NCBI RefSeq assembly: GCF_016863315.1 | Contig: NZ_BOOQ01000010.1 | Span: forward strand, 1 to 64,000 | Length of the DNA stretch: 64,000 nt | DNA from: Planotetraspora silvatica | Lineage (GTDB): Bacteria > Actinomycetota > Actinomycetes > Streptosporangiales > Streptosporangiaceae | Direction of reading: 5' to 3' | In this document: positions 8,331 to 50,286 of the stretch, piece after piece | Position numbering within the stretch: the first letter of the stretch is position 1 | Layout of the letters: each line of letters opens with the position of its first letter | Program-made: the position numbers and the translations under genes | Notes under the pieces: model-generated | The model's database searches: none | The model's input: the letters and a program-made list of their open reading frames with translations, nothing else | Told to the model about the DNA's origin: nothing

Positions 8331-8527
8331 TGCATGATCACGCTGGGTGTTTGTGCACGTCACACCGTGCCTGCCAGAACCTGTGCATGATCACGAACGG
8401 TGTTCGCGCAGGTCGCGCGATGTATGGAAGAACCTGTGCATGATCACGCCGGGTGTTGGGGCAGGTCAGCCCGTACGTTGCCGAACCTGTGCATGATCAC
8501 GGCCAAGGGGTGGGGGCCGTGGGGAGG
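8331..8527 (-). repeat. 53-bp repeat array 1 (four units)
   Basis: The core GCATGATCACG recurs with its first T (TGCATGA) at 8331, 8384, 8437 and 8490, exactly 53 bp apart each time. Between cores, GCAGGTC and GAACCTG are conserved and the rest varies. Read on the minus strand, the array starts about 27 nt after the stop codon of the LuxR-type gene (8528) and each unit reads CGTGATCATGCACAGGTTC. It lies where that transcript would end. Confidence 0.92.
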
Positions 8528-10864
8528 TCAGGTGGTGTCTTGTTCGGCTTTTTGGGCTGTCATCCACGCCGCGATCTGGGCGCGTGAGGTGTAGCCCAGC
8601 TTGGCCAGGATGTGCTCGACGTGGCCCTCCGCCGTCCGCTGGGCGACCACGAGGGCGGCGGCGATCTCCTTGTTGCTCAGGCCCTGGGAGATCAGTTCGG
8701 CGATCTCCAGCTCGCGCGCGGTCAGCGGCGACGCCGCCGAGGCGGTCGCCCCCGCCTCCTCACTCGCCGGTTCGGCCCCGAGCGCCTCCGCGACGGCCTC
8801 GTCCAGAGTCAGCCGCCCGCCCTGCAGCATCGCGCGGGCGAGCCTCTTGGCACCGAGTTGGTTCTCGAGGACGGCGACGCACTCCTGGTGCTGCTCGACG
8901 TACCTTCCCATCCGCAGCGTGGAGACCCCGACCGTGCGGGCGATGGCGTCGGCCGCCCCGAGCAGGTGGGCCGCCTTCGTGTGGTGCCCCTCCGCGGAGA
9001 GGATCCAGGCCAGGACCTCGACGGCCGTCGCCAGGCTCAGCCTGTCGTCGAACGCCCTGCCGAGCAGCAGGCCCTCGCGCGCTGCCGCCGTGGCGCGTTC
9101 GTTGTCGCCCTGCCGCCACAGGTGGATGGCGAATATCGCCAGGGTCCAGGCGCGGCACCAGCTCTCCTCGCGGTCGGCGGACAACGCGAGCCCCCGCTCG
9201 AACAGTTCTCCCGCGCGTGCCCGGTCCCCGAGGCAGCCGGTCGCGTCCGCCAGGGCGAGCAGCGCGATCGCGACCGCGAAGCCGTCGCCCGCGGCGGTGA
9301 GCAGGGTGACGGCCTCCTCGAGCAGCGGAACCGCCTGCTCGAAGTCGCCGCGGTTGTGTGCCGCCTTGCCGGAGACCAGGCACACCTGGGACAGGCTCAC
9401 CGGATCGTCCAGCTCGCGGGCCAGGTCCCGGGCCTCTGCCAGCAGCGGCTCGCCCGCCGGGGCGTCCCCCTGGGTGAACGCCAGCCATGCCGATGTGCAC
9501 AACGCGTGAGCGCGGGCGGCGGTGCGGTCAGGCTCCGCGTCCAGCATGCGGCCGATCCAGTGGCGGCCCTGGATGAACAGCGAGTTGGGAAGCCAGTGAG
9601 GCCGGTGCAGGTCCGTGGCCATGCGGAGTCCGATCGCGGCCTCTCCGGGCTCCCGCAGGCAGAACTCCAGCGCGGCCCGGAGGTTGGCCTGCTCCTGCCT
9701 GAGCCGGCTGAACCAGGCGACCTGCCGGGGTCCGAACCACTCGGCGGCCGCCTGGCCGGTGAGCCGGAGGTAGAAGTCCCGGTGCCGGCGCGCCAGTGTC
9801 CGGCGTTCGTCCGGGCCGGGCTCCCGGGTCCTGGCGAACTCGCGCAGGGTCTCCAGCATGCGGTATCTGACGTCACCCGCGTGCTCCTCCCTGAGCAGCA
9901 GCGACTTGTCCACCACGGCGTCGAGGAGGTCGAGGACGTCCTCGCGGGCGATGCCGTCGCCCGAGCAGACGGCCTCGGCGGCTTCGAGATCGAAATGGCC
10001 CGGGAAGATCGACATTCGCGTCCACAACGTCCGCTCGGCGGGCGACAACAACTGGAAGCTCCAGTCGATCAGAGCGTGCAACGTCCGCTGGCGCGGCACC
10101 GCCGTACGGCTCCCGCCGGTGAGCCAGCGGTAGCGGTCGTCGAGGCGCTCGACGAGCCCGTCCACCGACAACGTCCGCAGCCGGACGGCGGCGAGCTCGA
10201 TCGCGAGAGGGATGCCGTCCAGCCGGCGGCACAGGGTGGCCACCGCCTCGCGGTTGCCGTCGTCGAGCGCGAACCCGGGCAGGACGGCCGCCGCGCGCTC
10301 GGTGAAGAGGGTGACCGCGTCGTAGCGCTCCAGGGCCTTCAGCGTCCGGGCGCCGTCGGACTCGGGCACGGGGAGCGGAGCGACCCGCATGACACGTTCA
10401 CCCGTGATCCCGAGTGACTGCCGGCTCGTCGTGAGGATCCGGAGCTCGGGGATGCCGCGCAGGAGGGTGTCGGCGAGCGTGGCCACGGCGTCGAGCAGGT
10501 GCTCGCAGTTGTCGAGAACGAGCAACGTCCGGCGGGTGGAGAGGAATTCCGACAGCGCCCGCACGGGGCACCCCGTGGTCTGGTCGCGCAGGCCCACGGT
10601 CGCCGCGACCGTCTGGCCCACCAGAGCGGGATCGTCGAGCCCGCTCAGGTCGGCCAGCCAGACCTCGTCGAAAGCGCGGTGCTGCTCGAAGGCGGCGCGC
10701 AGGGCGAGCCGGGTCTTGCCGACTCCGCCCACGCCGGTGAGGGTCACCAGGCGCGAGACGGACAGCAGCCGCCTGATCTCCGCGAGCTCGTGCCTGCGGC
10801 CCACGAAGCTCGTGACGTCGGCGGGAAGATTGCCGACCTGCCGCGTGAACGCCGTACCGGCCAT
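8528..10864 (-). CDS. NB-ARC/TPR/LuxR-type transcriptional regulator (paralogue A)
   Basis: A 778-residue cytoplasmic regulator. A STAND-type ATPase domain carries the P-loop GVGGVGKT at residues 44-51, followed by LLVLDNCEHLL (Walker B) and a GLPLAIELA-type motif seen as GIPLAIELA. The middle is helical TPR-like repeats (~340-680). A LuxR helix-turn-helix closes the protein (LTARELEIAELISQGLSNKEI). ATP binding probably gates DNA binding; ligand and targets are unknown. A divergent paralogue of the same architecture starts at 10987, so the two share a 120-bp control region. A TAGCGT hexamer lies eight bases before the ATG, suggesting a leaderless mRNA. Confidence 0.87.
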   Translation of the reverse strand: MAGTAFTRQVGNLPADVTSFVGRRHELAEIRRLLSVSRLVTLTGVGGVGKTRLALRAAFEQHRAFDEVWLADLSGLDDPALVGQTVAATVGLRDQTTGCPVRALSEFLSTRRTLLVLDNCEHLLDAVATLADTLLRGIPELRILTTSRQSLGITGERVMRVAPLPVPESDGARTLKALERYDAVTLFTERAAAVLPGFALDDGNREAVATLCRRLDGIPLAIELAAVRLRTLSVDGLVERLDDRYRWLTGGSRTAVPRQRTLHALIDWSFQLLSPAERTLWTRMSIFPGHFDLEAAEAVCSGDGIAREDVLDLLDAVVDKSLLLREEHAGDVRYRMLETLREFARTREPGPDERRTLARRHRDFYLRLTGQAAAEWFGPRQVAWFSRLRQEQANLRAALEFCLREPGEAAIGLRMATDLHRPHWLPNSLFIQGRHWIGRMLDAEPDRTAARAHALCTSAWLAFTQGDAPAGEPLLAEARDLARELDDPVSLSQVCLVSGKAAHNRGDFEQAVPLLEEAVTLLTAAGDGFAVAIALLALADATGCLGDRARAGELFERGLALSADREESWCRAWTLAIFAIHLWRQGDNERATAAAREGLLLGRAFDDRLSLATAVEVLAWILSAEGHHTKAAHLLGAADAIARTVGVSTLRMGRYVEQHQECVAVLENQLGAKRLARAMLQGGRLTLDEAVAEALGAEPASEEAGATASAASPLTARELEIAELISQGLSNKEIAAALVVAQRTAEGHVEHILAKLGYTSRAQIAAWMTAQKAEQDTT

Positions 10865-10986
10865 GATTTTTAACGCTAGGCGGCGGAAAGTGCCTGGTCA
10901 AACCGGATCGGTGTGGTTTGGGGCAGAAATGTACCCTGAATATGGCAGGGCATAATTCGCTCGGGATCGGGGTGGCCGAAAGCGGT

Positions 10987-14820: not shown

Positions 14821-14923
14821 CACCTGCCCCCGGGGCGTCATCCTTACTGCCCGGTAGAGCCGCCCGTCCGGCATGAGGACGCAGGCCTGCCGGCCGTGAC
14901 CTGACGCGCGGGGAGGGGATGGG

Positions 14924-17211: not shown

Positions 17212-18456
17212 GTGATTGTCACGCTTGCGGCCTCGGCTGTCGTGGCGGGTCTCGTGATCTGCGGGATCATCGCGTTCGCGGCCAGTGAGAACAGGGGCGT
17301 CCAGTATGTGCGCGGCATGGAGCGGTGGACTCCGCCGCGCGGCGGCCGACTGGGTGCGGGTGGGGACGAGACCCTGCCGGGCGGCACCGCGGGGGCACGC
17401 CCGGCAGGGGCCGTGGCGACGGGCGAGGGCGACGACGCCGCGGATGTGACCGCCCTGATCGAGACCGGCCCGGATGGAAACGGCCCGGATGGAAGCGGCC
17501 CGGATGGAAGCGGCTTGGACGATGCCCAGGAGGTGGATGGCCAGAGTGGCGACGGCCCGGATGAAGCCCACCTGAACGGTGACCAGAACGGTGGCGACGG
17601 GACGGTGGGGGCCGACGATTGGTCCAGCCTGCCGCTGGCTCCGCTGGTGGCCTCTCCGCGTCCGGCGTTGGACGACGGAGTCCCCCGGCGCAGCCCCGAC
17701 GCGATCGAGCGCCGGACCCTGCGCTCGCGGCCTGGAGGGGACCCGCGGCCGGTTCCCCTGGTGAAGTTCGACGCGGCCGGCCGTACGAACGCGGGGAACC
17801 AGGGTGACAACGCGGACGGGTACCTCATCCAGGAACAGTTGATCGCGATGGCCGACGGGATCATCCGGGCGACCGAGAGCCGCTGGGCGTCGGCCCTCGC
17901 TCTCGGGGCGGTCGTGGCCGACCAGGCGGGGGACTCGCTCGATCCGTTGCAGGCGCTCCGCGACAGCCTGGAGTTCGCCAACGCCACCCTGCGCGGGAAG
18001 GGCGAGGAGGCCCCCGAGCTCGCCGGGATGGCGACGTCCCTCGACGTGGTGCTCCTCGCCGAGATCGCCGGTGCGTGGGCCCTGGTCTCCGCGCACGTCG
18101 GCAGCGGGAGCATCTTCCTGTTCACCTCGCCCGACGAGGGAGAGATGCTGACGACCCCGCACTCCGTGGGGCTGGGCCCGATCGTCCGGGCCGTGGGTGC
18201 GGCGGACCAGGTGACCGGCGACGTGGAGAGCACGGCCGTGCGACCGGGCGCCCTGGTGGTGCTCGCGTCCAACGGCCTGACCGGCGTGTTGTCGTTTCCC
18301 GAGATCCAGGCCGTCGTCGGCCGGTACTTCCACGCCGCCCCGCAGGCGTGCGCGGAGGTCCTGCTGCGGCTCGCCTACCGCCACGGCCCGAAGGACGACG
18401 TGACGGTGGTCGTGGCCCGGGTGGTCAGGGTCACCGGCTACGTCTGGGGCTCCTGA
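17212..18456 (+). CDS. Membrane-anchored PP2C-like protein
   Basis: 414 residues. An N-terminal membrane helix (residues 1-24) precedes a long acidic, low-complexity linker and a C-terminal PP2C-like domain (~200-414). Within it NADGYLI, IAMADGIIRATESRWAS (compare VADGMGG), LVVLASNGLTGVLSFPEI (compare SDGLT) and DDVTVVVARV (compare DNITVVV) follow in family order. The Asp of SDGL, a metal ligand in active PP2C enzymes, is Asn here, so it may be a pseudophosphatase or a divergent enzyme. The linker holds a 15-bp repeat (GPDGS units). The GTG start is chosen to keep the helix; the ribosome site is weak. No kinase gene is adjacent. Confidence 0.65.
   Translation: MIVTLAASAVVAGLVICGIIAFAASENRGVQYVRGMERWTPPRGGRLGAGGDETLPGGTAGARPAGAVATGEGDDAADVTALIETGPDGNGPDGSGPDGSGLDDAQEVDGQSGDGPDEAHLNGDQNGGDGTVGADDWSSLPLAPLVASPRPALDDGVPRRSPDAIERRTLRSRPGGDPRPVPLVKFDAAGRTNAGNQGDNADGYLIQEQLIAMADGIIRATESRWASALALGAVVADQAGDSLDPLQALRDSLEFANATLRGKGEEAPELAGMATSLDVVLLAEIAGAWALVSAHVGSGSIFLFTSPDEGEMLTTPHSVGLGPIVRAVGAADQVTGDVESTAVRPGALVVLASNGLTGVLSFPEIQAVVGRYFHAAPQACAEVLLRLAYRHGPKDDVTVVVARVVRVTGYVWGS
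17467..17526 (+). repeat. 15-bp in-frame repeat in the PP2C-like gene
   Basis: Three near-identical units GGCCCGGATGGAAGC (17467, 17482, 17497) and a degenerate fourth (17512) encode GPDGN, GPDGS, GPDGS and GLDDA in the linker between the membrane anchor and the catalytic-like domain. Confidence 0.8.
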
Positions 18457-18544: not shown

Positions 18545-18557
18545 TCGCGGAGGATCT

Positions 18558-33612: not shown

Positions 33613-33835
33613 CGCGCTGGCAGGTCTTCGGACTCATGGGCGGCACGGCGGACGCCGCGTTTCCTACTGGCTGTCGCTTCCCGGACCGTCCCCGGCCCGG
33701 GCCGGATGGATCCAGTGCATGTGACAACGGTCGTTCCCAATCACCGCTGCGGGGCAGTTCCGGAATTGGCGAAGCTCGCGCGCCGGGCACGCGAGCACGT
33801 CCGCACCGGATTCCCTCTTGCCTCGGCCGGCCCTG
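33605..33835 (-). promoter_or_regulatory. Cobalamin (AdoCbl) riboswitch upstream of nrdA
   Basis: On the minus strand the leader reads GAGGGAATCCGGTGCGG, then CCGGAACTGCCCCGCAGC and GGTGATTGGGAAC, and finally the B12 box AGTCCGAAGACCTGCC (33619-33637). These are the conserved core blocks of the cobalamin riboswitch in the right order and spacing. AdoCbl binding is expected to shut off nrdAB, as described for Streptomyces coelicolor nrdABS. Confidence 0.92.
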
Positions 33836-33862
33836 GACGGGCGGCCGAACCAGCTGCAGGGG

Positions 33863-33909
33863 ACACCATATATAGGGGTCTGGAGAAAGTCACACCCAAC
33901 ATGTCGTGT
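33863..33909 (-). promoter_or_regulatory. Tandem NrdR boxes over the nrdAB promoter
   Basis: ACACCATATATAGGGG (33863-33878) matches the NrdR consensus ACACTATATATAGTGT at 13 of 16 positions. ACCCAACATGTCGTGT (33894-33909) matches at 11 of 16. They are 31 bp apart, the spacing typical of paired NrdR sites. The first covers a TATATA -10, and the second lies over the -35 area (TTGGGT on the minus strand). The nrdR gene itself is not in the window. Confidence 0.85.
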
Positions 33910-35224: not shown

Positions 35225-35302
<78 letters not shown>

Positions 35303-39915: not shown

Positions 39916-41060
39916 AGAAGCCGTCCGATCTGGCGCAGTCCCGCCAGATCGTGGACGTCTTCCGGCATGGCGGGCACCTGGGCGAGCGGCACCGTGGGGT
40001 GCGCCGAGGTGAAGTGTTCCTGCTCCCGCTGCTCACGCGCGGCGAGTTGCATGCGATCGGCATGCAGCCGCAACACGGCCACCGTCAGGTCGTGCTCGCC
40101 GCGCGTCTCCAGATCCTCGGCGGCGGCGTAACTCCGGGCGGAGGACAGCGTGGAAGCCGATGCCTGGTGCACCCGGTTGACCACCACACCGGCCAGGGGC
40201 ATGCGGTCGTCGGCCAGCCGTTCGACGAAGTAGGAGGCCTCGCGCATGGCGTCGCGCTCCGGCGCGGCGACGACGAGGAAGGCGGTGCCCGGCGCCTGCA
40301 GGAGCCGGTAGGTCTGCTCGGCTCGCTGCCGGAACCCGCCGAAGACCGCGTCGAGGGCCGACACGAAGGTCTGGATGTCCTTCAGCACCTGCGCTCCGAG
40401 CACCTTCGTGAGCATGCCCGCGATGATGCCGAATCCTGCGTTGAGCAGCTTGAACGCGCTTCGCCCTCCGGCTTTGGCCGGGGCCGTGAGGATGCGGATC
40501 AGCCGTCCGTCGAGGAACCGCCCGAGCCGTTCCGGCGCGTCCAGGAAGTCGAGGGCGGACCGCGACGGCGGGGTGTCGACCACGATCAGGTCCCAGTCGC
40601 CCGAACGGCGGAGCTGGCCCAGTTTCTCCATGGCCATGTACTCCTGCGTGCCGGAGAAGCTCGACGACAACGACTGGTAGAACGGGTTGGTCAGGATCTG
40701 CTGAGCTCGCTGGGGGTCGGCGTGGGCCTCGATGATCTCGTCGAAGGTCCGCTTCATGTCGAGCATCATCGCGTGCAGTTCGCCGCCGTTCGCCGCGTCG
40801 ACCCGGTCGGCCGCGCTCCCGTTGCCGGTGATCCGGCGGGGGGTGTTGTCGAGCTCGGTGAGGCCCATGGACTGGGCCAGTCGCCTGGCGGGGTCGACGG
40901 TGAGCACCACGACCGCCCGCCCGCGCTCCGCCGCCCGCAGCCCGAGCGCCGCCGCCGTCGTGGTCTTCCCGACGCCCCCCGAGCCGCAGCACACGATGAT
41001 CCGCGTGGCGTCGTCGTCCAGGATCGCGTCGATGTCCAGCGCGGGGGCGGTCCTGCTCAC
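39906..41060 (-). CDS. ArsA/Get3-like ATPase, second of a pair
   Basis: 384 residues. P-loop CGSGGVGKTTTAAALGL (~residue 24), VDPARRLAQ (switch), DWDLIVVDTPPSRSALDFLD (Walker B region). The signature Lys of the deviant Walker A (GKGG) is Ser here (GSGG), unlike its upstream partner, which suggests a heterodimer in which only one subunit completes the other's site. The order matches Rv3679-Rv3680 next to whiB4 in M. tuberculosis, described as bacterial Get3-like. AGAGG precedes the GTG. It lies 40 bp after the first ATPase gene. Confidence 0.88.
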   Translation of the reverse strand: MSRTAPALDIDAILDDDATRIIVCCGSGGVGKTTTAAALGLRAAERGRAVVVLTVDPARRLAQSMGLTELDNTPRRITGNGSAADRVDAANGGELHAMMLDMKRTFDEIIEAHADPQRAQQILTNPFYQSLSSSFSGTQEYMAMEKLGQLRRSGDWDLIVVDTPPSRSALDFLDAPERLGRFLDGRLIRILTAPAKAGGRSAFKLLNAGFGIIAGMLTKVLGAQVLKDIQTFVSALDAVFGGFRQRAEQTYRLLQAPGTAFLVVAAPERDAMREASYFVERLADDRMPLAGVVVNRVHQASASTLSSARSYAAAEDLETRGEHDLTVAVLRLHADRMQLAAREQREQEHFTSAHPTVPLAQVPAMPEDVHDLAGLRQIGRLLAS

Positions 41061-41100
41061 AGATCAACCTCTTCTGTACGGTCGGTCGAGTATGCGGCCG

Positions 41101-42129
41101 TCATGCCGCGCCCTGCTCGTTGATGGCCTCGGCGAGCTCGTAGAGGCCGGTGAGGTCCACGCCGTCGGCCAGCAGCGGCAGGTCGTACCGAGGGGCGCCG
41201 GCGGTGTCCAGGGTGCCGCGCTCGCGCCTTTCCAGCTCCGTACGGCGGGCATGCTCCGAGACCTCCAGGGCGAGGGCCTCGGCGATCAGGGACGCGTCGG
41301 CCTTGCCGTCCGCGAGCCCGGCCGCCTTCAGCCCGAGCGCGAGCTCCGAGAGGTCGAACCGGTCCGCCGCGGCGGCGTCGAGGACGGTGTCCGGCAGGGT
41401 CGTCGGCCGGACCATGTTGATGAAGACGCCCCCGACAGGGAGCTTGGCCGTACGCAACTCGGTGATGCCGTCGAGCGTCTCCTGGACGGGCATCTCCTCC
41501 AGGAGCGTTACGAAGTGCACGGCCGTCTCGGGCGAGGCGAGGACGCTGCGGACCATGTCGGCGTGGTTCTTGACCGGGCCGACCCGGGCCAGCCCGGCGA
41601 CCTCCTGGGTGACGTTGAGGAAGCGGGCGATCCTGCCGGTCGGGGGAGCGTCCATGACGATCGCGTCATAGACCCTCCGCCCGGACTTGTCGCGCCGCCG
41701 TACGGCCTCGCTGGTCTTGCCCGTGACCAGGACGTCGCGCAGGCCGGGCGCGATGGTCGTGGCAAAGTCGATCATGCCCATCCGGGTGAGCGCCTTGCCC
41801 ATGCGCTTGATGCCGTAGAACATCTCGAGGTAGTCGAGCATGGCCTCTTCCGGATCGATCGCCAGCGCGTAGACGTCGCCGCCTCCGGGCGCCACAGCGA
41901 TCTTCCGCTCCTCGTACGGCAGCGGCGGAAGGTCGAAGACCTGGGCGATGCCCTGCCGCCCCTCGACCTCGACGAGCAACACCTTGCGGTTGCCCGAGGC
42001 CAGTGCGAGGGCGAGCGCCGCGGCCACCGTGGTCTTGCCGGTGCCGCCCTTCCCGGTCACGACGTGCAGTCGCACGCCTTCCCAGTCGGAGTCACGGGCT
42101 GTGCTCTTTCTGCCGGCTGGCTGTCTCAC
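41101..42129 (-). CDS. ArsA/Get3-like ATPase, first of a pair
   Basis: 342 residues. Deviant Walker A VVTGKGGTGKTTVAAALA (~residue 25) with the signature Lys, then VEVEGRQGIAQVFD, YDAIVMDAPPTGRIARFLNV and a C-terminal helical region. No arsenic-resistance genes are near, so arsenite pumping is unlikely; Get3-like handling of membrane proteins or metabolites is more probable, by analogy with the mycobacterial pair. GGAGGAGG lies five bases before GTG 42129. First gene of the two-gene operon; divergent from the DUF4177/RidA-like pair. Confidence 0.88.
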   Translation of the reverse strand: MRQPAGRKSTARDSDWEGVRLHVVTGKGGTGKTTVAAALALALASGNRKVLLVEVEGRQGIAQVFDLPPLPYEERKIAVAPGGGDVYALAIDPEEAMLDYLEMFYGIKRMGKALTRMGMIDFATTIAPGLRDVLVTGKTSEAVRRRDKSGRRVYDAIVMDAPPTGRIARFLNVTQEVAGLARVGPVKNHADMVRSVLASPETAVHFVTLLEEMPVQETLDGITELRTAKLPVGGVFINMVRPTTLPDTVLDAAAADRFDLSELALGLKAAGLADGKADASLIAEALALEVSEHARRTELERRERGTLDTAGAPRYDLPLLADGVDLTGLYELAEAINEQGAA

Positions 42130-42409
42130 GTCGCCTCCTCCGGCCTGCCTGACGGGGTCGATGCGCGGGCCCCGCCACAGCTGTGCCGGTCGGCCGGCCT
42201 GCTCCACTCGCCCACGCTTGGAAGGCTACCCAACGGTCATATGCCGATTCATCTCGCCCGACTTCGTGGTGAACCGCGCAGGATGGCTTGCACGTCGATT
42301 TGGCAATACTTGGTCCGGACGGCCGGGGCGATTCGGGTGGCGCCTCATGTGCCCCATGGAACGGCGCAGGCGAGAGCGGCGGGGGCGGCGGCATCGATAG
42401 CCTGTGCAC

Positions 42410-42562
42410 ATGACCAAGTGGGAGTACGTCACGGTGCCGCTGCTGACGCATGCGACGAAGCAGATCCTGGACAACTGGGGAGAAGACGGCTGGGAGCTCG
42501 TCTCGATCGTCCCGGGGCCCAACCCCGAGCAGCTCGTCGCCTACATGAAGCGGCCCAAGTGA
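42410..42562 (+). CDS. DUF4177 small protein
   Basis: 50 residues: MTKWEYVTVPLL at the start and DGWELVSIVPG in the middle, the hallmark of DUF4177 (a small beta-hairpin/helix protein found next to RidA-like genes in actinobacteria). Function unknown. TAGCCT (42398-42403) six bases before the ATG suggests a leaderless mRNA. Its TGA shares a base with the ATG of the next gene (TGATG), so the two are translationally coupled. Confidence 0.85.
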   Translation: MTKWEYVTVPLLTHATKQILDNWGEDGWELVSIVPGPNPEQLVAYMKRPK

Positions 42563-43026
42563 TGGCGACGCCGGAAGAGCGGATCGCCGACCTCGGGCTC
42601 GTGTTGCCCGAGGTCGTGCCCCCGCTGGCCGCCTATGTGCCCGCCGTGCGGACGGGCGACTACGTGTACACCTCGGGCCAGCTGCCGCTGGTCGACGGGA
42701 AGCTCGCCGTCACCGGCAAGGTGGGGGCCGAGGTCTCGGCCGACGAGGCGAAGGAGCAGGCCCGTATCTGCGGGCTCAACGCCCTGGCGGCCCTGAAATC
42801 GGTCGTCGGAGATCTCTCCAAGATCGCCAGGATTGTGAAGGTCGTCGGGTTCGTCGCCAGCGCGCCGGACTTCACCGGCCAGCCGCAGGTCGTCAACGGC
42901 GTGAGCGAGTTCCTGGGAGAGGTCTTCGGGGATGCGGGAAAGCACGCCCGTAGCGCCGTCGGCGTCGCCGTCCTCCCCCTCGACGCCCCCGTAGAAGTCG
43001 AGATCATCGCCCAGCTCCACCCCTGA
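42562..43026 (+). CDS. RidA-family (YjgF/YER057c/UK114) protein
   Basis: 154 residues. VRTGDYVYTSGQLPLVDGKLAV and the C-terminal VAVLPLDAPVEVEIIAQL are RidA-like. The classical catalytic Arg region (CR-V) reads LPLDAPVEVE here, so this is one of the non-canonical Rid subfamilies; true 2-aminoacrylate deaminase activity is uncertain. Syntenic with Rv3678c. A 53-bp repeat array starts 31 nt after the stop. Confidence 0.85.
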   Translation: MATPEERIADLGLVLPEVVPPLAAYVPAVRTGDYVYTSGQLPLVDGKLAVTGKVGAEVSADEAKEQARICGLNALAALKSVVGDLSKIARIVKVVGFVASAPDFTGQPQVVNGVSEFLGEVFGDAGKHARSAVGVAVLPLDAPVEVEIIAQLHP

Positions 43027-43057
43027 CCTTTCCCGCGCGACCGCCACAACCCGCGCG

Positions 43058-43269
43058 TGATCATGCACACCTTCGGAGAAGGGGCCGCTGACCAGCCCCC
43101 TCTCCGGGCGTGATCATGCGCAGGTTCGTGATCAATGGGTCCGAGCTGCGCTGATGCGCTCCGTGATCATGCACACTTTCGTGGTCATGCGGATTGACCT
43201 GCGCCGATGTCTTTCGTGATCATGCACGTGGGTCGACCTTGGCCTTATCGGGCGGCGATATGACGATCG
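43058..43269 (+). repeat. 53-bp repeat array 2, left half (four units, plus orientation)
   Basis: TGATCATGC cores start at 43058, 43111, 43164 and 43217, exactly 53 bp apart. The sense is that of the RidA-like gene, whose stop is 31 nt before the first core. The second unit can pair GCGCAG with CTGCGC, the same arm position where other units pair CAGGT with ACCTG. A degenerate core (CGATCGTGC) at 43264 ends the series. Confidence 0.92.
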
Positions 43270-43282
43270 TGCGCCGACCGCG

Positions 43283-43461
43283 TGCATGATCACGAAGCTT
43301 GTTTGTGCAGGTGGTCAAGGGCGCGGGCGAATGTGTGCATGATCACGGAGAGTATTCGGCCAGGCCAGGGCACACTTGCGCGAACCTGCGCATGATCACG
43401 AAGTGCATCGGCGCAGCTCAGGCGCCTTGATCACGAACCTGTGCATGATCACGCGCGACAG
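43283..43461 (-). repeat. 53-bp repeat array 2, right half (four units, minus orientation)
   Basis: TGCATGATCACG-type cores at 43283, 43336, 43389 (CGCATGATCACG) and 43442, again exactly 53 bp apart, in inverted orientation to the left half; only about 60 bp separate the two blocks. No minus-strand gene ends to its right; the next start is the plus-strand NUDIX gene at 43547. An extra half core (TTGATCACGAACCTG) lies before the last unit. Confidence 0.92.
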
Positions 43462-43546
43462 GTGTGCGAGGGGTGTGTGAATGGGGCGGCGGGGTGAATA
43501 GCATGAGGTTCCGGAAACCGAGTGATGTTCTGCTAGGAGGACGCAC

Positions 43547-44392
43547 ATGGGCATTCCGCTGCCGGGAGAGTTCGGGGAACGCGCGCGAGGCATCCTGGCC
43601 GGTCAGATCATCCCCGTCCCCGCCCGTGACGCCGCCACCGTCGTGCTGCTCCGGGACGATCCCCTCGAGGTCTACCTGCTGAAGCGCAAGGCGACGATGG
43701 CCTTCGCCGCGGGCGCCTATGTCTTCCCCGGAGGATCGGTCGACCCCCGCGACACCGATCACGCCGTCGGCTGGGCAGGTCCCTCGCCCGCCGAATGGGG
43801 TGAGGCGTTCCGGGCCGACGAGCGGACCGCCCGGGGCCTGGTCTGCGCCGCCGTACGGGAGACCTTCGAGGAGTCCGGAGTCCTGCTCGCCGGGCCCGGC
43901 CCGGAGACCGTCGTGGCGGACACCACGGGCGACGACTGGGAGGCCGACCGCCTGGCGCTGATCGACCGCACGCTCTCGTTCGCCGAGTTCCTCGACCGCC
44001 GCGGGCTCGTGCTGAGGTCCGATCTGCTGAAGGCCTGGGCGCACTGGATCACGCCCGAGATTGAGACCCGGCGATTCGACACGCGATTCTTCGTGGCCGC
44101 CCTCCCCGCCGGCCAGCGGACGCGCGACGTCGGCGGCGAGGCGGACGTCGTGGCGTGGATGACCGCGGACACCGCGCTCGCCCGGGCCCGCGCAGGCGAG
44201 ATCATGCTCATGCCACCGACATTTCATACATTGACCGAGATAGCGGCGTTCGAGAGGATCGACCGCGTGTTCGCGAACGACCAGACGATAACGACCTTCA
44301 TGCCGTCCGCCAGAGAGCACGACGGTCAGGTCGTGCTGGACGTCCCCGACATCGACTACCGCCTCCCCGACGTGACGCGGGACTCGGCATGA
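43547..44392 (+). CDS. NUDIX hydrolase, NUDT19-like
   Basis: 281 residues. The Nudix-like region is split: FAAGAYVFPGGSVDPRD...TARGLVCAAVRETFEESGVLL, where a long insert separates the Gly-rich loop from RETFEESG, the layout of NUDT19-type CoA/nucleotide diphosphatases. The C-terminal half (AHWITPEIETRRFDTRFFVA) is also typical. AGGAGGACGCAC precedes the ATG. Its TGA overlaps the MBL start (ATGA), so the two are coupled. Confidence 0.85.
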   Translation: MGIPLPGEFGERARGILAGQIIPVPARDAATVVLLRDDPLEVYLLKRKATMAFAAGAYVFPGGSVDPRDTDHAVGWAGPSPAEWGEAFRADERTARGLVCAAVRETFEESGVLLAGPGPETVVADTTGDDWEADRLALIDRTLSFAEFLDRRGLVLRSDLLKAWAHWITPEIETRRFDTRFFVAALPAGQRTRDVGGEADVVAWMTADTALARARAGEIMLMPPTFHTLTEIAAFERIDRVFANDQTITTFMPSAREHDGQVVLDVPDIDYRLPDVTRDSA

Positions 44393-45180
44393 GCGGACTG
44401 CGGATCCCGGTCGACGGCCCGGACGGATCGGGTACGGCCGGCGCGACCAGCCTGCTCGCCCCCAACCCTTCGCCGATGACCCTCGACGGCACGAACACGT
44501 GGGTCGTCGGACGGTCGGACGACGTGCTGGTCGTCGACCCGGGCCCGGACGACGAGACGCACCTCAAGCGCATAGCCGGTCACCTGGGGGAGCGCAGGGT
44601 GACGGCGATCCTGCTCACCCATGGGCATGAGGATCACAGCGGCGGCGCCGGGCGGTTCGCCGAGATGGTGGGCGCGCCGGTCCGCGCGCTCGATCCCCGG
44701 CATCGACTGGGTGAAGAAGGACTCGGCGACGGGGACGTGGTCACGGCCGGCGGCACGGAGGTCAGGGTCGTCGGCACGCCGGGGCACTCGTTCGACTCGC
44801 TGTGCTTCTGGTTGCCGGAGGACCGGGCGATGCTCACCGGCGACACGATCCTCGGCCGGGGGACCACGGTGATCGCCCACGACGGGGATCTGGGCGACTA
44901 CCTTCGCAGCCTCGACAGGCTCAGGCGCGGCGCCGAGATGCTGGAGGCCGAGGCGCTGCTTCCCGGTCACGGGCCGGTGCTGCCCGAGCCGATCGGCGTG
45001 CTCGACGCCTACATCGCCCACCGGCGTCAGCGGTTGGAGCAGATCCGCGAGGCCATCAGGCAGGGAGCCAAGGACGCCCGCGAGATCGTCGAGATCGTGT
45101 ACGCCGATGTGGACACGTCACTGTGGCCTGCCGCGGAGATGTCGGTCGCGGCCCAGCTCAACTACCTCAAGACGCTCTAG
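44389..45180 (+). CDS. MBL-fold metallo-hydrolase
   Basis: 263 residues of the metallo-beta-lactamase fold with THGHEDHSGG (HxHxDH), GTPGHSFDS, LTGDTILG and LPGHGPVL supplying metal ligands. The C-terminal helical part (VLDAYIAHRRQRLEQIREAI) is that of the LACTB2/RNase-like branch. The syntenic mycobacterial gene is Rv3677c, of unknown role. The start is fixed by the ATGA overlap with the NUDIX gene. The TAG stop is shared, as the palindrome CTAG, with the convergent crp-type gene. Confidence 0.88.
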   Translation: MSGLRIPVDGPDGSGTAGATSLLAPNPSPMTLDGTNTWVVGRSDDVLVVDPGPDDETHLKRIAGHLGERRVTAILLTHGHEDHSGGAGRFAEMVGAPVRALDPRHRLGEEGLGDGDVVTAGGTEVRVVGTPGHSFDSLCFWLPEDRAMLTGDTILGRGTTVIAHDGDLGDYLRSLDRLRRGAEMLEAEALLPGHGPVLPEPIGVLDAYIAHRRQRLEQIREAIRQGAKDAREIVEIVYADVDTSLWPAAEMSVAAQLNYLKTL

Positions 45181-45857
45181 CGCGAGCGGTTGAAGAGCCG
45201 CTCCCTGTCCATGATCACGACGGCCTTGGCCTCGATGCGCAGCCAGCCTCGCTGGGCGAAGTCGGCCAGAGCCTTGTTGACCGTCTCCCGTGAGGCGCCC
45301 ACAAGCTGGGCCAGTTCCTCCTGGGTGAGGTCGTGGTGCACCCGGATGCCGTCGTCGGTCTTCTTCCCGAAACGGTCGGCCAGATCGAGCAGTTGCTTGG
45401 CGACACGGCCGGGAACGTCGGTGAAGACCAGGTCGGCCAGCACGTCGTTGGTACGGCGGAGCCGCTGCGCGAGAGCGCGCAACAGATGGAGGGCCACCTC
45501 GGGACGGCCGGTCAGCCATGGGCGCAGATCGTCGTGCCCCAGCCCGGCGAGCCGGACGTCGGTCAACGCGATCGCGGACGCCGTACGAGGGCGAGGGTCG
45601 AAGAGGGAGAGTTCGCCGAACATCTCACCCGGGCCGAGGACGCTCAACAGGTTCTCGCGGCCGTCGGGGGCTGTTCGCGCTAACTTGATCTTGCCCTCGA
45701 GCACCACGTAGAGCCGGTCGCCCGTCTCGTTCTCGCTGAAGAGGGTGCGGCCCTTGGGCAGCTCGACCTCGGTGACGCTGGTCCGCAGCGCCGCGGCGCT
45801 CTCACGGTCGAGCGCGGAGAACAGGGGAGCCTTGCTCAGTACTTCTTCGGTGCTCAC
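45177..45857 (-). CDS. crp: Crp/Fnr-family transcriptional regulator (Crp/GlxR type)
   Basis: 226 residues. An N-terminal cyclic-nucleotide domain (GETLF-type core seen as GRTLFSENETGDRLYVVLEG and FGELSLFDPRPRTASAIAL, with the phosphate-binding cassette RTAS) and a C-terminal HTH (LTQEELAQLVGASRETVNKAL). It binds cAMP as Crp of Mycobacterium and Streptomyces and controls carbon metabolism and development genes. GGAGGCACC precedes GTG 45857. Divergent from nth, as Rv3676 and nth are neighbours in M. tuberculosis. Stop codon shared with the convergent MBL gene. Confidence 0.9.
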   Translation of the reverse strand: MSTEEVLSKAPLFSALDRESAAALRTSVTEVELPKGRTLFSENETGDRLYVVLEGKIKLARTAPDGRENLLSVLGPGEMFGELSLFDPRPRTASAIALTDVRLAGLGHDDLRPWLTGRPEVALHLLRALAQRLRRTNDVLADLVFTDVPGRVAKQLLDLADRFGKKTDDGIRVHHDLTQEELAQLVGASRETVNKALADFAQRGWLRIEAKAVVIMDRERLFNRSR

Positions 45858-45941
45858 GGTGCCTCCTTTACTGTGGTTCGCGCTCGGTCGTCGGCTCCGT
45901 GCTAGCCATTGTGACCCACGCCTTCCGCATAGGCTTACGGG

Positions 45942-46661
45942 GTGTCCCGCAAAGTCCCATCGGTTGTCGAGTCCCGGCTCGCTCTGGTGCGTCGTGCCCG
46001 GCGGATCAATCGAATCCTGGCCGAAACCTATCCTGACGCTCATTGCGAGCTCGACTTCGGCAACCCCCTTGAACTGCTGGTCGCCACGATCCTCTCGGCG
46101 CAGTGTACGGACAAAAGGGTAAATATGGTTACTCCGGTACTTTTTGCGAAGTATCGGACAGCTGCCGAGTTCGCCGCCGCCGACCGGGCGGAGCTCGAGG
46201 GGATCATCAAATCAACCGGGTTCTTCCGGGCGAAGACGAACAGCATCATCGGCATGGCCCAGGCCCTCTGTGAACGGCACGAAGGAGAGGTTCCCTCCAC
46301 CCTCGCCGAGCTGGTCAAGCTGCCGGGGGTCGGCCGCAAGACCGCGAACGTGGTCCTCGGCAACGCCTTCAACGTTCCGGGGATCACCGTGGACACCCAC
46401 TTCCAGCGGCTGTCCCGCCGCTTCGGCTGGACCACGGAGACCGATCCCGTGAAGATCGAGCACGAGGTCGGGGACCTCATCCCCAAGTCCCAGTGGACGA
46501 TGTTGTCCCATCGGCTGATCTGGCACGGCCGCCGGATCTGCCAGGCGCGCAAGCCCGCCTGCGGCGCCTGCCCGCTCGCCGCCCTCTGCCCGTCGTACGG
46601 CACCGGCCCCACCGATCCCGAGGAGGCCGGGAAGCTGGTCAAGTCCGGTCCGTTCTCGTGA
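45942..46661 (+). CDS. nth: Endonuclease III
   Basis: 239 residues. DNA glycosylase/AP lyase of base-excision repair. HhH motif [12 protein letters not shown] with catalytic Lys (GRKTA), catalytic Asp in [12 protein letters not shown], and a C-terminal 4Fe-4S cluster with the exact CX6CX2CX5C spacing ([17 protein letters not shown]). A TAGGCT hexamer lies just before the GTG start, so the mRNA may be leaderless. Divergent from crp; the gap is 84 bp. Confidence 0.95.
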
Positions 46662-46794
46662 CTCGGGGCGGTCGACTACGGCGCCGCGCACGATTTCCCC
46701 TCAGCGGGAAGCCTGAGCGCCCCGGGATGGTTGTACGGCAGGCTGGTCGGCTCAGGCCCCCGAGGGGCCGAGCCAGCGCTCATCGGAGGTACAC

Positions 46795-47442
46795 GTGGTT
46801 CCCGGCTGGTTGACCGACTTGGCGGCGGGAGCCGTACGGACCCGGGTGCCTGCCGCGTTGCGGCCGCCCGCCAACGGAGACGGCCGGCGCGCGGCGGTGC
46901 TGCTGCTCTTCGGCGAGGGGCCGGAGGGGCCGGACGTCCTGCTCATCCAGCGCAGCTCCAAGGGCCGTGTGCACGCCGGGCAGCCCGCGTTCCCCGGTGG
47001 CGGTCTCGACCCCGAAGACGACGGCCCGATCGGCGCCGCTCTGCGTGAGGCCGAGGAGGAGACCGGTCTCGACCCGCGAGGCGTCGAGGTGGTCGGCACC
47101 ATGTCCGAGTTGTACGTGTCGCGGAGCGACAACCGGGTGACGCCGGTGCTGGCCTGGTGGCACACGCCCTGTGCCGTGCACGCCGCCTCGCCGGACGAGG
47201 TGGAGGCGGTGGAGCGGATCCCCGTCGCCGAACTCGTCGATCCGGCCAACCGGCTCCAGCTCCGCTATCCCGCCGGAGCCGTGTCGCACCCCGCATTCCG
47301 CGTGCGCGGTCTGCTGGTGTGGGGATTCACCGCGGGAGTTCTCGACGGCGTCTTGTCCGCGGCGGGATTCGAGCAGCCGTGGGACAGGTCACGGATCGAG
47401 GATCTGCCTCCCGAAGTCCTTGACCTGGCCTCCCGAGGTTAG
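46795..47442 (+). CDS. NUDIX hydrolase, CoA pyrophosphatase type
   Basis: 215 residues. The CoA-pyrophosphatase (NudL/NUDT7) version of the Nudix motif, AFPGGGLDPEDDGPIGAALREAEEETGL, is preceded by LLIQRSSKGRVHAGQPAFPGG (the UPF0035 CoA signature region). Expected to cleave CoA or acyl-CoA to phosphopantetheine and ADP. GGAGGTACAC precedes the GTG. Syntenic with Rv3672c; the thioredoxin-like gene found between nth and this gene in mycobacteria is absent. The 3' end overlaps the convergent HEAT-repeat gene by 54 bp. Confidence 0.88.
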   Translation: MVPGWLTDLAAGAVRTRVPAALRPPANGDGRRAAVLLLFGEGPEGPDVLLIQRSSKGRVHAGQPAFPGGGLDPEDDGPIGAALREAEEETGLDPRGVEVVGTMSELYVSRSDNRVTPVLAWWHTPCAVHAASPDEVEAVERIPVAELVDPANRLQLRYPAGAVSHPAFRVRGLLVWGFTAGVLDGVLSAAGFEQPWDRSRIEDLPPEVLDLASRG

Positions 47443-48021
47443 CGTCAGGCCGAGCATCGCCCAGTCGGCGACGTCCTCGTCCGTGTCCGACGTCAGGCGC
47501 CGCAGCGCGGAGAGCCCGGTCGGGTCGGGGGGATCACCGATGACGTTGGGCAACGCGTAGGCCGCGCCGTACCGGACCACGGGATCGTCGCTCCCCGAGA
47601 GTTCGATCACGGACGGCAGGGCGCGCACGTCGCGCAGGTGCCCGAACGCGATCAGCACCGAATAGAGCACATGGGAATCGCTCTCGCTCACGGCGAGATA
47701 GCGCAGGACGGGCAGGGTCCTGTCGGCGAACGGGCGGTCACGGCCGAGTTCCCCGAGGATGTCCACGCCGAGCACGCGCTCGCCGGCGGACGCGCTCGCA
47801 CACAGCCGCCTGGCCACGGTGAACGTCTCCAGATCCCCTCGTGCCTGCAGCGCGGTGATGGCCTGCCATCGGGCGGCCCCGTCCGGGTCCTTGTCGTCGA
47901 GCGCCATCCGGATGAGCTCGTCGACACCGGATCCGTGATCGCCGGTCGGCCCCGCAGATCCCTGCCGGGCCTGCTCACGCCGGGTTTCGCCGCCGGCGGA
48001 TCGTCCGTCCCCTGCCTCCAT
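47389..48021 (-). CDS. HEAT-repeat protein
   Basis: 210 residues. After a disordered N-terminus come four or five helical pairs of PBS-lyase/HEAT type (DGAARWQAITALQARGD, SAGERVLGVDILGELGRD, DSHVLYSVLIAFGHLRDVRAL, DDPVVRYGAAYALPNV). A protein-binding scaffold; the partner is unknown. TATCGT six bases before ATG 48021 suggests leaderless expression. It shares a 71-bp divergent promoter with the MarP-like gene. Confidence 0.8.
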   Translation of the reverse strand: MEAGDGRSAGGETRREQARQGSAGPTGDHGSGVDELIRMALDDKDPDGAARWQAITALQARGDLETFTVARRLCASASAGERVLGVDILGELGRDRPFADRTLPVLRYLAVSESDSHVLYSVLIAFGHLRDVRALPSVIELSGSDDPVVRYGAAYALPNVIGDPPDPTGLSALRRLTSDTDEDVADWAMLGLTLTSGGQVKDFGRQILDP

Positions 48022-48092
48022 GACGTCACGATATCGAGCAGACCTGTGGGACGCCTGCACGATGAGGGTCGCGGCTGGATACCGTTGAAACT

Positions 48093-49277
48093 GTGCGCGG
48101 TGATCTCCTGGATCTCATACTGATCGGCCTCGTGGTGGCCTTTGCCGTATCCGGTTATCGGCAGGGCTTCATCATCGGGGCCTTCAGCTTCATCGGATTC
48201 GTCGGCGGCGCCCTCCTTGGGATGTTCGTCGCGCCGCCTATCGCGGGCGCCATCCTGAGCGGCGACATCGAGAGGGCGCTGCTGGCCATCGTGATCGTGT
48301 TCTTGGCGGCGACGGTGGGGCAGTTCGCGTCGTCCACGGTCGGGGCGGTGGTGCGCAGCCACGTGGCCTGGGAGCCCGCGAAGACGGTGGACGCCTTCGG
48401 CGGCTCGGTGGCCAGCGGCCTGTCCGTCCTGCTCATCGCGTGGCTGCTCGGGTCGCTGATGGTCTCGATGAGCCTCGCCGTGATCAAGGACCAGGTCAAC
48501 GGATCGGTGGTTTGGCAGACGGTCGACGATGCCATTCCGAGTGGGGTCCGGGCGCTGCAGAAGCCGTTCAGGGACTTCGTCGACTCCTCCGAGTGGCCCC
48601 AGGTGATCACCTCCATCGGCGGCCAGAACGTCGCGCCTCCCGACGAAGGGGTGCTGACCGGCAGCCCCAACCTCACCCGGGCTCGCAAGTCCATCGTGAA
48701 GGTGCAGGGCACCGCACCTTCCTGCCGCAAGCGCATCGAGGGCACCGGATTCGTCTACGCGGCTCACAAGATCATGACCAACGCCCACGTGGTCGCAGGG
48801 GTGACGCGGGATCTCCGGGTCACCGACTCCACGGGGGCGGGACACGACGCCCGTGTGGTGCTCTACAACCCCGACAGGGACATCGCCATCCTCGACGTGC
48901 CCGACCTTCAGGTGCAGCCCCTCCGCTTCGACTACTCGGCCGAGAGCCGCGACAACGCGGTCATCGCCGGCTACCCCAAGGGGCACGGGTTCACCCCCCT
49001 GGCCGCGAGGATCAGGGTCAAGCAGCGGGCGGAGTCGTACGACATCTACAACCACCGGAAGGTCGACCGGGAGGTGTACGCGATCCGGGGCAAGGTCCAG
49101 CCGGGCAACTCGGGAGGCCCGCTGCTCAGCCCGGACGGCAAGGTGTTCGGCGTGATCTTCGCGGCGGCCACCGACCAGCCGGAGACGGGCTACGCGCTCA
49201 CGGCCGAGGAGGTCCTTCCCGACGCCGAGGACGGCAGCGCCGCGGTAGCCCGCGTAGGCACCCAGGAATGCGACTGA
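48093..49277 (+). CDS. MarP-like membrane serine protease
   Basis: 394 residues. Four N-terminal membrane helices (CvpA-like, residues ~1-130), then a periplasmic trypsin-like domain with the triad His (MTNAHVVAG), Asp (NPDRDIAILD) and Ser (VQPGNSGGPLL). Two Cys (PSCRKR and TQECD) match the disulfide used by MarP (Rv3671c) for activation under acid and oxidative stress. TACCGT seven bases before GTG 48093 suggests leaderless expression. The stop is followed at once by short CAGGCGTGATGCC-type repeats and then 53-bp array 3. Confidence 0.92.
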   Translation: MRGDLLDLILIGLVVAFAVSGYRQGFIIGAFSFIGFVGGALLGMFVAPPIAGAILSGDIERALLAIVIVFLAATVGQFASSTVGAVVRSHVAWEPAKTVDAFGGSVASGLSVLLIAWLLGSLMVSMSLAVIKDQVNGSVVWQTVDDAIPSGVRALQKPFRDFVDSSEWPQVITSIGGQNVAPPDEGVLTGSPNLTRARKSIVKVQGTAPSCRKRIEGTGFVYAAHKIMTNAHVVAGVTRDLRVTDSTGAGHDARVVLYNPDRDIAILDVPDLQVQPLRFDYSAESRDNAVIAGYPKGHGFTPLAARIRVKQRAESYDIYNHRKVDREVYAIRGKVQPGNSGGPLLSPDGKVFGVIFAAATDQPETGYALTAEEVLPDAEDGSAAVARVGTQECD

Positions 49278-49283
49278 CCCCCC

Positions 49284-49603
49284 AGGCGTGATCGCCCTCA
49301 GGCGCGGGTCAGGCGTGATGCCGTCAGGCGTGCGTTGGGCGTGATGCCGTCAGGCGTGATCATGCGCAGGTTCGTGGAAAGGCGGCCTGACCTGGCCACC
49401 CTTTGGGCGTGATCATGCACAGGTTCGGAAAGTGCCGTCCCGACCTGCGAAAACCCCCTCCGTGATCATGCGCGGGTTCGGGAAAACATCGCATCACCTG
49501 CGAAGACGCCATTCGTGATCATGCACGGATTCGGCCAACCTGGGCCAGGCCTGGCCGGATCCAACGCGTGATCATGCACGCCGTCGGGCCCTTGGGCCCA
49601 ACC
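49284..49603 (+). repeat. 53-bp repeat array 3 (five units) with a short-repeat lead-in
   Basis: Cores TGATCATGC at 49357, 49410, 49463, 49516 and 49569, all 53 bp apart, in the sense of the preceding protease gene. Units 2 and 3 keep CACAGGTTCGG or GCGGGTTCGG and CGACCTGCG or TCACCTGCG. Between stop and first core, 49284-49356 holds irregular CAGGCGTGATGCCGT repeats. The array ends at the stop of the convergent DUF309 gene. Confidence 0.92.
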
Positions 49604-50077
49604 TCAGCCCAGATGCCCCACGATGCGGGAAATCGCGATGTCCGCGTCGGAGGTGCCCGAGTCGATCTCAACGATGATCTGATCGGCGGCCAACGTCATC
49701 GCCCGGAGGTCCAGGTCGAACGGCCTGCGAGAGCCGTACGAGCCGAGACGGGCGGCTCCACGGGCCAGGAGGGAGACGGCTCCGGACGGGTTGCCGCGCT
49801 GAATATGGGTCAAGCCAACACATATCTGGGCGAGTCCCTGCCAGAGCTCTCGCTCGTCGGCGGGGCCGGTCTTCCATCGCGCCTCCAGCACTTCATGTGC
49901 GTGGAACGGGCGGCCGGTCTCGAGGAACCGGCGCGCCTCGCGGAGCGCTTGCTGTGCATCCGGGGTGTAGTCGTCCGGAACGCGCGGCACACCTTCCGTG
50001 CCGTACGGCAGGGGCCTGCCGTAGTCGTCCCGGGGTCGGGAGCTGCGTGGTCTGCCTGCTTCATCACGGTCGCGCAT
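49604..50077 (-). CDS. DUF309 protein
   Basis: 157 residues. The DUF309 helical bundle with the signature FHAHEVLEARWKTGPADERE and LAQICVGLTHIQRGNPSGA. Function unknown; the conserved His-Glu pair (HAHEVLE) and Glu/Trp could bind metal. ATG 50077 follows GGAGAAGAC; an earlier in-frame ATG lies inside the last unit of array 4. The gene is sandwiched between array 3 and array 4 in inverted orientation, an unusual arrangement. Confidence 0.85.
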   Translation of the reverse strand: MRDRDEAGRPRSSRPRDDYGRPLPYGTEGVPRVPDDYTPDAQQALREARRFLETGRPFHAHEVLEARWKTGPADERELWQGLAQICVGLTHIQRGNPSGAVSLLARGAARLGSYGSRRPFDLDLRAMTLAADQIIVEIDSGTSDADIAISRIVGHLG

Positions 50078-50090
50078 GTCTTCTCCGCAT

Positions 50091-50286
50091 CGCATGATCA
50101 CGAACAGTGTTCAGCCTGCTCATGGTTATTGATCGAGAACTCTTGCATGATCACGGAGGGGGTTTTCGCAGGTCGGGACGGCACTTGCCGAACCTGTGCA
50201 TGATCACGATCGGAGAGCGGCCAGGTCAGGTGGCCTTTCCACGAACTTGTGCATGATCACGCCCAAGGGGGAGTGGGGCTTGGGGG
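50091..50286 (-). repeat. 53-bp repeat array 4 (four units)
   Basis: Cores at 50091 (CGCATGATCACG), 50144, 50197 and 50250, exactly 53 bp apart. Read on the minus strand, the array starts about 26 nt after the stop of the epoxide-hydrolase-like gene (50287) and runs into the leader of the DUF309 gene. The stop-proximal part (CCCCCTTGGGCGTGATC) resembles that of array 1 (CCCCTTGGCCGTGATC). Confidence 0.92.

What the first reader, a model, noticed from the sequence alone, without database searches (positions are those of the whole stretch)
8331..50286. A family of intergenic arrays in strict 53-bp register around a TGATCATGC core
Seen: five blocks at four loci carry cores exactly 53 bp apart: 8331/8384/8437/8490; 43058/43111/43164/43217; 43283/43336/43389/43442; 49357/49410/49463/49516/49569; 50091/50144/50197/50250. 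All 16 within-block intervals are 53. Besides the core, units keep CAGGTTCG and about 12-20 bases later CGACCTG, which can pair as a hairpin; in unit 43111 both arms differ yet still pair (GCGCAG with CTGCGC). The core occurs nowhere else in 64 kb. Inference: spacing and core are under constraint while the rest drifts. 53 bp is five helical turns, so a protein could bind every unit on one face; alternatively each unit is an RNA hairpin in a 3' UTR. Several M. tuberculosis MIRU repeats are also 53 bp, but I recognise no sequence match.
Basis: partly seen in the sequence, partly recalled or inferred. Interest (0 to 1): 0.88.

Follow-up and report, generated by a model that had tools for sequence, protein, structure and literature searches.

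The report
Phased DNA arrays at gene ends
A soil actinomycete and some related genera carry rows of 3-6 copies of a short DNA signal, usually spaced 53 base pairs apart and often placed just after genes; they look like docking rails for an unidentified DNA-binding protein that may stop transcription at gene ends.

Summary
All 21 TGATCATGC cores in the window lie in five blocks with 16 of 16 intervals of 53 bp; three blocks are on the minus strand. The genome (genus Planotetraspora) holds 644 exact-core pairs at 53 bp, 26 at 52, 2 at 54. In 1.565 Mb examined: 59 arrays of 3-6 cores (52 of 59 have 4 or 5); 22 of 22 neighbouring arrays face each other; 39 of 57 testable arrays begin near the stop codon of a same-strand gene (random positions 28 of 450), in 10 the core's TGA is the stop codon. 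Leaders are on average C-rich and G-poor. Between species the core hardly changes (7 of 537 sites) while arrays as a whole diverge more than fourfold-degenerate sites. A second genus with another core keeps 53 bp; a third uses 41 bp. The hairpin reading fails: pairing is no better than chance at 8 of 8 positions in 252 non-redundant units. AA/TT interchange at fixed positions points to DNA-shape recognition. Best reading: binding arrays for an unidentified protein at gene 3' ends, most likely a directional roadblock terminator (function inferred, about 40%). I found no description in the paper searches made.

The parts
8332..8499 (-). [quoted passage not shown]
8500..8527 (-). C-rich leader between the stop codon and the first core of array 1
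43027..43057 (+). Leader between the stop codon of the YjgF-family gene (42562-43026) and array 2
43058..43225 (+). Array 2, four cores at 53 bp, left arm of an inward-facing pair
43284..43451 (-). Array 3, four cores at 53 bp, right arm of the pair; no same-strand gene end found beside it, the next gene (43547-44392, weak NUDIX match) runs the other way
49278..49356 (+). 79-nt leader of array 4 with degenerate CGTGATGCC-type repeats
49357..49577 (+). Array 4, five cores at 53 bp, after a gene with Colicin_V and trypsin-like domains (48093-49277)
50092..50259 (-). Array 5, four cores at 53 bp, after an alpha/beta-hydrolase gene (50287-51207, minus); faces array 4 across an ORF with a DUF309 match (49604-50101, minus)
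50260..50286 (-). C-rich leader between the stop codon and the first core of array 5

Best explanation
Each array is a row of binding sites for a sequence-specific DNA-binding protein (not identified), laid from the 3' end of a gene in the direction of transcription. Shown: position, polarity, fixed period, 3-6 cores, leader that is on average C-rich and G-poor, slow change of the core and of most TTCG and GACCTG positions, and no support for an RNA hairpin within units. Inferred: the protein occupies successive cores cooperatively at near-integral helical phase and forms a polar roadblock that stops RNA polymerase just after the stop codon; the G-poor leader lets Rho load on the nascent RNA and finish termination. 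Inward-facing arrays serve both genes of a convergent pair.
For: 39 of 57 arrays start within -60..+100 nt of a same-strand gene's stop codon (random positions 28 of 450); 22 of 22 neighbouring arrays convergent. Leader C 0.56/G 0.16 (398 nt) against 0.40/0.34 at convergent and 0.37/0.32 at tandem gene ends without arrays. Columns 0-8: 7 substitutions at 537 aligned sites between this genome and P. mira, against 0.15-0.33 in many free columns. No within-unit pairing beyond chance, strong correlations only between close columns. AA/TT interchange: columns 42-43 AA 74 (50 expected), TT 53 (22), AT 4 (25), TA 14 (44) in 252 units, though AT is the commonest of these four in intergenic DNA; AAA/TTT interchange in a second genus (TTT 22, AAA 17, ATT 5, ATA 4 of 62 units). 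The TTCG offset is the same in 570 of 570 units, and in 17 of 20 scored 52-bp units the missing base lies between TTCG and GACCTG. Genus g34 keeps 53 bp with another core (62 of 70 distinct steps; consensus). Two terminator-like sites against 4.7 expected in 20 kb. Rho in 10 of 10 genomes.
Against: No protein, footprint, RNA 3'-end or expression data. 18 of 57 arrays have no same-strand gene end called at their start, 14 have none on either side; 3 single arrays in an earlier count lie only at the end of an opposite-strand gene. 27 of 263 exact cores in 1.565 Mb lie outside arrays. G003 has only 127 pairs and has lost units, so the arrays are dispensable there. Arrays themselves are hardly C-over-G skewed (0.323/0.291), so only the leader is rut-like. 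Single arrays have somewhat more predicted RNA structure than control intergenic DNA (z -2.16, reverse strand -1.34, control -0.71). One of the two terminator-like sites lies inside array 4 on the minus strand and a promoter-like match lies in array 2. Rho is nearly universal, so weak support. The 41-bp and irregular relatives weaken the five-turn argument.
Confidence: 0.4

Rival explanations
1. The arrays are topology or nucleoid sites: gyrase or a nucleoid protein binds them at gene 3' ends to handle supercoils from convergent transcription, as proposed for REP/BIME clusters.
For: Position at gene ends and facing pairs; a paper on REP families says E. coli REPs are targeted by gyrase and that cleavage at ORF 3' ends may relieve supercoiling (passages of PMC3733652).
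Against: Strict polarity with the gene and stop-codon adjacency are not needed for a supercoil sink; the conserved bases are long and specific.
Confidence: 0.2
2. Selfish or decaying repeats with no host function, kept in register because they arose by tandem duplication.
For: Patchy distribution; whole-unit losses in G003; fast divergence of free columns; two loci at which a relative lacks the array.
Against: 19 of 19 P. mira arrays examined have orthologous arrays here; core substitution far below fourfold sites; polarity with genes; no Y1 transposase in this genome; 0 stretches in the viral-contig collection for the 52/53-bp pattern; no match for the one array tested against plasmids and the one tested against phages, at a sensitivity that would miss diverged arrays.
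Confidence: 0.15
3. The arrays act as RNA: tandem hairpins or a long inverted-arm hairpin in 3' UTRs that terminate or stabilise transcripts.
For: 13 inward-facing loci fold as RNA with mean z -15.5, range -7.6 to -27.7; some arms are near-identical in the same unit order (6 of 41 same-index pairs at 70% or more, 4 of 118 different-index, against 28 of 2066 same-index pairs between loci).
Against: Within-unit arms do not covary; swapped arms from different loci pair nearly as well as real ones (mean -162 against -176 kcal/mol, 14 pairs); 11 of 40 arrays have no partner; AA/TT interchange.
Confidence: 0.12
4. Polar replication-fork barriers or replication-transcription conflict guards, with transcription termination secondary.
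For: Sal boxes downstream of mammalian rDNA arrest forks and bind a termination factor (passages of PMC5368702); the arrays have polarity.
Against: No fork-barrier protein identified here (none was searched for); forward and reverse counts are balanced (329/315), as expected if polarity follows genes.
Confidence: 0.08

Closest known systems
Mammalian Sal-box arrays bound by TTF-I; yeast Reb1 sites (passages of PMC5368702)
   Same: Repeated protein sites just downstream of a transcription unit
   Different: Eukaryotic rDNA; here hundreds of exact-core pairs in a bacterial genome, fixed 53-bp period, protein unknown
REP/BIME elements
   Same: Extragenic, at gene 3' ends, many copies, clustered, often between convergent genes (PMC3733652, abstract and passages)
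   Different: Not a 20-40 bp palindrome, no hairpin covariation, no Y1/RAYT-type gene in this genome, polarity tied to the gene, strict 53-bp register
Mycobacterial MIRU repeats (recalled)
   Different: MIRUs are recalled as lying mainly between co-directional genes; here often convergent gene ends. No sequence comparison made; my one paper search for MIRU with 53 bp returned 0 papers

Membership tests
REP/BIME | Palindromic unit forming a hairpin | tested here: not met
   At 8 of 8 arm positions pairing is no more than chance in 252 non-redundant units
REP/BIME | Associated RAYT (Y1 transposase, PF01797) | tested here: not met
   No match in this genome; 8 of 20 genomes searched have one, among the array or motif carriers in that search only G004, G091 and G120
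REP/BIME | Location at gene 3' ends | tested here: met
   39 of 57 arrays same-strand, 43 of 57 either side
REP/BIME | Gyrase or IHF binding | not testable with these tools
   needs ChIP or footprinting
Intrinsic terminator | GC hairpin followed by a T run | tested here: not met
   2 terminator-like sites in 40000-59999 against 4.7 in shuffles; one of them lies inside array 4, minus strand; no supported unit hairpin
Sal-box-like roadblock terminator (works like) | Tandem sites downstream of the transcription unit with fixed polarity | tested here: met
   39 of 57 arrays, 22 of 22 neighbours convergent
Sal-box-like roadblock terminator (works like) | A bound protein arrests RNA polymerase | not testable with these tools
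   no protein identified
Known RNA family (Rfam 15) | Match at the gathering score | tested here: not met
   3 matches in the window (cobalamin riboswitch, tRNA, 6C RNA), none at the arrays; at E<=1 in 42950-50400 only miRNA-family hits far below their gathering scores, at 43166-43347 and 49503-49587 on both strands
CRISPR array | Long near-identical repeats separated by unrelated spacers, with cas genes | tested here: not met
   The shared run is about 11 bp (cores were selected as exact) and the stretches between share TTCG and GACCTG motifs; cas genes not searched
MIRU | Sequence match to mycobacterial MIRU | not tested
   definition recalled only

The most novel reading that the evidence does not exclude
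A genome-wide, DNA-encoded termination system in bacteria: an unknown protein polymerises on phased site arrays laid from the stop codon onward and acts as a polar gene-end insulator, a bacterial counterpart of the rDNA Sal-box/TTF-I terminator, present in several genera of one family with period variants (53 and 41 bp).
Probability: 0.3. Interest if true: 0.93.

Novelty: new variant of a known kind. Interest (0 to 1): 0.8.

Why it matters
Bacterial transcripts are taught to end by hairpin-plus-T signals or by Rho. A DNA-bound array that marks the ends of many genes with fixed polarity and helical spacing would be a third, protein-roadblock mode used genome-wide. The sequence makes firm predictions (where transcripts end, what a four-core probe pulls down), and the group offers natural comparisons: species with full arrays, one with eroded arrays, and relatives with 53-bp and 41-bp versions.

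Tried and rejected
Within-unit RNA hairpin: rejected by pair counts in 97 and then 252 non-redundant units and by 17 of 97 units folding that way. In 24 units of G062 the same 8 pairs are also at or below chance; a high z at columns 9-37 there goes with 0.08 paired and I took it as small-sample noise. A second candidate pairing (columns 11-13 with 42-43) in genus g34 gave a hint at n=48 (13-43 paired 0.62 against 0.44) and is not among the top distant pairs in g1. Inter-arm pairing as the designed structure: real arms pair only slightly better than swapped ones (which replaces, where incomplete end pieces were counted). Stop codons in all three frames as the reason for the period: 53 and 52 cycle the frame, but 54, which does not, occurs 2, 17, 1, 3, 25 and 10 times in six genomes (a few of these rows are other repeats), so I dropped it. 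REP/RAYT: dropped. Mobile element: thought unlikely; the loci where a relative lacks the array are not clean insertions. Conservation of array position between genera: of 35 array-side genes from G062 and G054, 5 had a hit and 1 a clear orthologue (85% identity) in the held stretches of this genome, with no same-strand core downstream and one core within 700 bp; no conclusion. The binding protein was not found; I could not compare whole gene contents.

Rows dropped before counts: one palindromic overlap array (C2 346755 minus); arrays with fewer than two exact cores, and 2 of its 59 arrays too near a stretch end for the gene test; 52- and 54-bp units left out of the column profile and of the covariation sets; near-duplicates removed at 70-72% identity. 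In one search the step counts repeat overlapping loci; one search recounts them without repeats. One search was a script that stopped half-way; one search is its corrected form with a wider search range. In one search steps of 53 were allowed up to 2 core mismatches, 52 and 54 one, other steps from 45 to 61 none.
Full report
WHAT IS THERE. The window is C10:1-64000 of an 8.66-Mb genome. Its genus is Planotetraspora: a strict pattern scan of named genomes returned 73 stretches, all titled Planotetraspora (the window's own record may be left out there). The family name Streptosporangiaceae is recalled. Contig lengths identify G002 as P. mira, G001 as P. kaengkrachanensis and G062 as Planotetraspora sp. 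A-T 1434; the genome search places G062 in another genus (g59) than the window. G003 is probably P. phitsanulokensis (not verified). All 21 exact cores are in the five blocks of the finding. Three blocks are on the minus strand, so four of the five arrays form two inward-facing pairs.

PERIOD AND SIZE. Whole genome: 644 exact-core pairs at 53, 26 at 52 and 2 at 54. In 1.565 Mb examined there are 59 arrays; 184 of 192 steps are 53, 7 are 52, 1 is 54; other steps from 45 to 61 were allowed for exact cores and none was found. Cores per array: 3 (5 arrays), 4 (36), 5 (16), 6 (2). Of 263 exact cores there, 27 lie outside arrays. If exact pairs per array are alike elsewhere, about 230 arrays exist (672 pairs, 175 exact-core steps per 59 arrays; inference). 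Distribution is uneven: 136.6 pairs/Mb in the first 849 kb, 27.9/Mb in 322 kb from 20 other places, 74/Mb overall.

GENE CONTEXT. With a home-made codon-bias gene caller, 39 of 57 arrays start within -60..+100 nt of a same-strand gene's stop codon (28 of 450 random positions do), median 19 nt; in 10 the TGA of the first core is the stop codon; 43 of 57 touch a gene end on either side and 14 none. All 22 pairs of neighbouring arrays converge; the gap is 15 or 16 bp in 8 of 22. Counting single exact cores too, one minus-plus neighbour pair exists (C2 346755). The leader is on average C-rich and G-poor (0.56/0.16 over 398 nt, against 0.40/0.34 and 0.37/0.32 at other gene ends). Leaders listed for G054 and 47 distinct 40-nt leaders of g34 and G120 (0.50/0.21) look alike.

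SELECTION. The 19 P. mira arrays examined all have an orthologous array in this genome. The core (columns 0-8) changed at 7 of 537 sites; many free columns changed at 0.15-0.33. Arrays as a whole differ at 0.111 per site, other intergenic DNA 0.053, genes 0.029, fourfold sites 0.068 (61,015 sites). Indels per substitution are fewer in arrays (0.058) than in other intergenic DNA (0.133). So register and core are guarded while the rest evolves fast. Some of the extra change looks like exchange between facing arms: 6 of 41 same-position unit pairs are 70% or more alike, against 28 of 2066 between loci; template switching at imperfect palindromes is my recalled explanation, not tested.

DNA OR RNA. 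In 252 non-redundant genus units (from 501 distinct), the 8 hairpin positions pair no more often than independent columns would (for example 12-35: 0.631 against 0.629; 9-38: 0.095 against 0.123). Strong correlations are only between close columns (12-13, 42-43). At 42-43 AA and TT are favoured and AT and TA avoided, unlike intergenic background, where AT is the commonest of the four. Genus g34 shows AAA/TTT interchange at 11-13. AA and TT are alike to DNA-shape readers but not to RNA readers (inference). TTCG sits at a fixed offset in 570 of 570 units, and in 52-bp units the missing base falls between TTCG and GACCTG in 17 of 20 scored, of 22. Inward-facing loci do fold as RNA very strongly (13 loci, mean z -15.5), but arms taken from different loci pair almost as well, so a shared consensus explains most of it.

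RELATIVES. The 18-mer GTGATCATGCANNNNTTC is at 0-3 per genome in 140 of 150 family genomes, but 156-725 in the five genus genomes, 542 in G062, 146 in G053, 105 in G092, 34 in G091 and 16 in G054. In a 246-genome class sample, none of the 224 genomes outside the family exceeds 2. With a looser core (TGATCNTGC) further carriers appear: G086 (233 pairs) and G037 (50), both genus g34, and G120 (34); G054 has 126. In the g34 stretches 62 of 70 distinct steps are 53, in G120 5 of 9, and g34 has GACCTG at the same columns. Opposite-strand neighbours there are also inward-facing (19 of 19). These stretches were chosen because they hold arrays. G054 uses 41 bp (52 of 59 steps) with CAGGTC, the reverse complement of GACCTG. 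G053/G092 stretches are irregular (31-45 bp, one 70). G003 lost units: worked out by hand from the alignment ends, three loci differ by 212, 106 and 106 bp, exact multiples of 53, another (C2 244071) by 481, which is not.

MECHANISM. Binding of a protein to phased DNA sites under selection is my firm reading (about 80%). The roadblock-terminator function is inferred (about 40%): position, polarity, a rut-like leader, few terminator-like sites (2 against 4.7 expected, one of the two inside array 4) and presence of Rho (10 of 10) fit it; no experiment bears on it. Rivals are gyrase or nucleoid sites, selfish repeats, RNA function and fork barriers.

LITERATURE. Searches showed no description of these arrays. 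I saw search listings and starts of abstracts only; (the string GTGATCATGC) 10 of 48 papers were listed; most subscription papers are not held. I read passages only of PMC12306157, PMC3733652 and PMC5368702. MIRU features and quasipalindrome mutation are recalled, not read.

Noticed in passing
actinobacterial genomes sampled: GTGATCATGCAGGACTTC, an 18-mer that would encode VIMQDF, is the usual single match in many genomes across the class, probably a conserved coding stretch; it sets the background of the motif search.
   Followed up: no
window 7946-8081 and 17436-17514: Two 15-bp tandem repeats sharing a CCCGGAT stretch, possibly another repeat family.
   Followed up: no
window 49283-49358: Degenerate 26-bp repeats with CGTGATGCC between the gene stop and array 4, resembling worn cores.
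   Followed up: no
window 33602-33869, 35228-35301, 56708-56783: Cobalamin riboswitch, tRNA and 6C RNA by Rfam.
   Followed up: no
G001:C32:22144-22233: 27-bp tandem copies that carry the core (TGATCATGCACGAGCGAACCTTGGGTG), half of 54 bp.
   Followed up: no
G091 C31, C56, C106: Three back-to-back inverted pairs of the 18-bp motif, 3 bp apart, among the 26 sites listed for this genome; the others listed are single.
   Followed up: no
genome G000: Arrays are unevenly spread: most of 20 sampled places have no pair while contigs C1 and C2 and the window are rich.
   Followed up: partly
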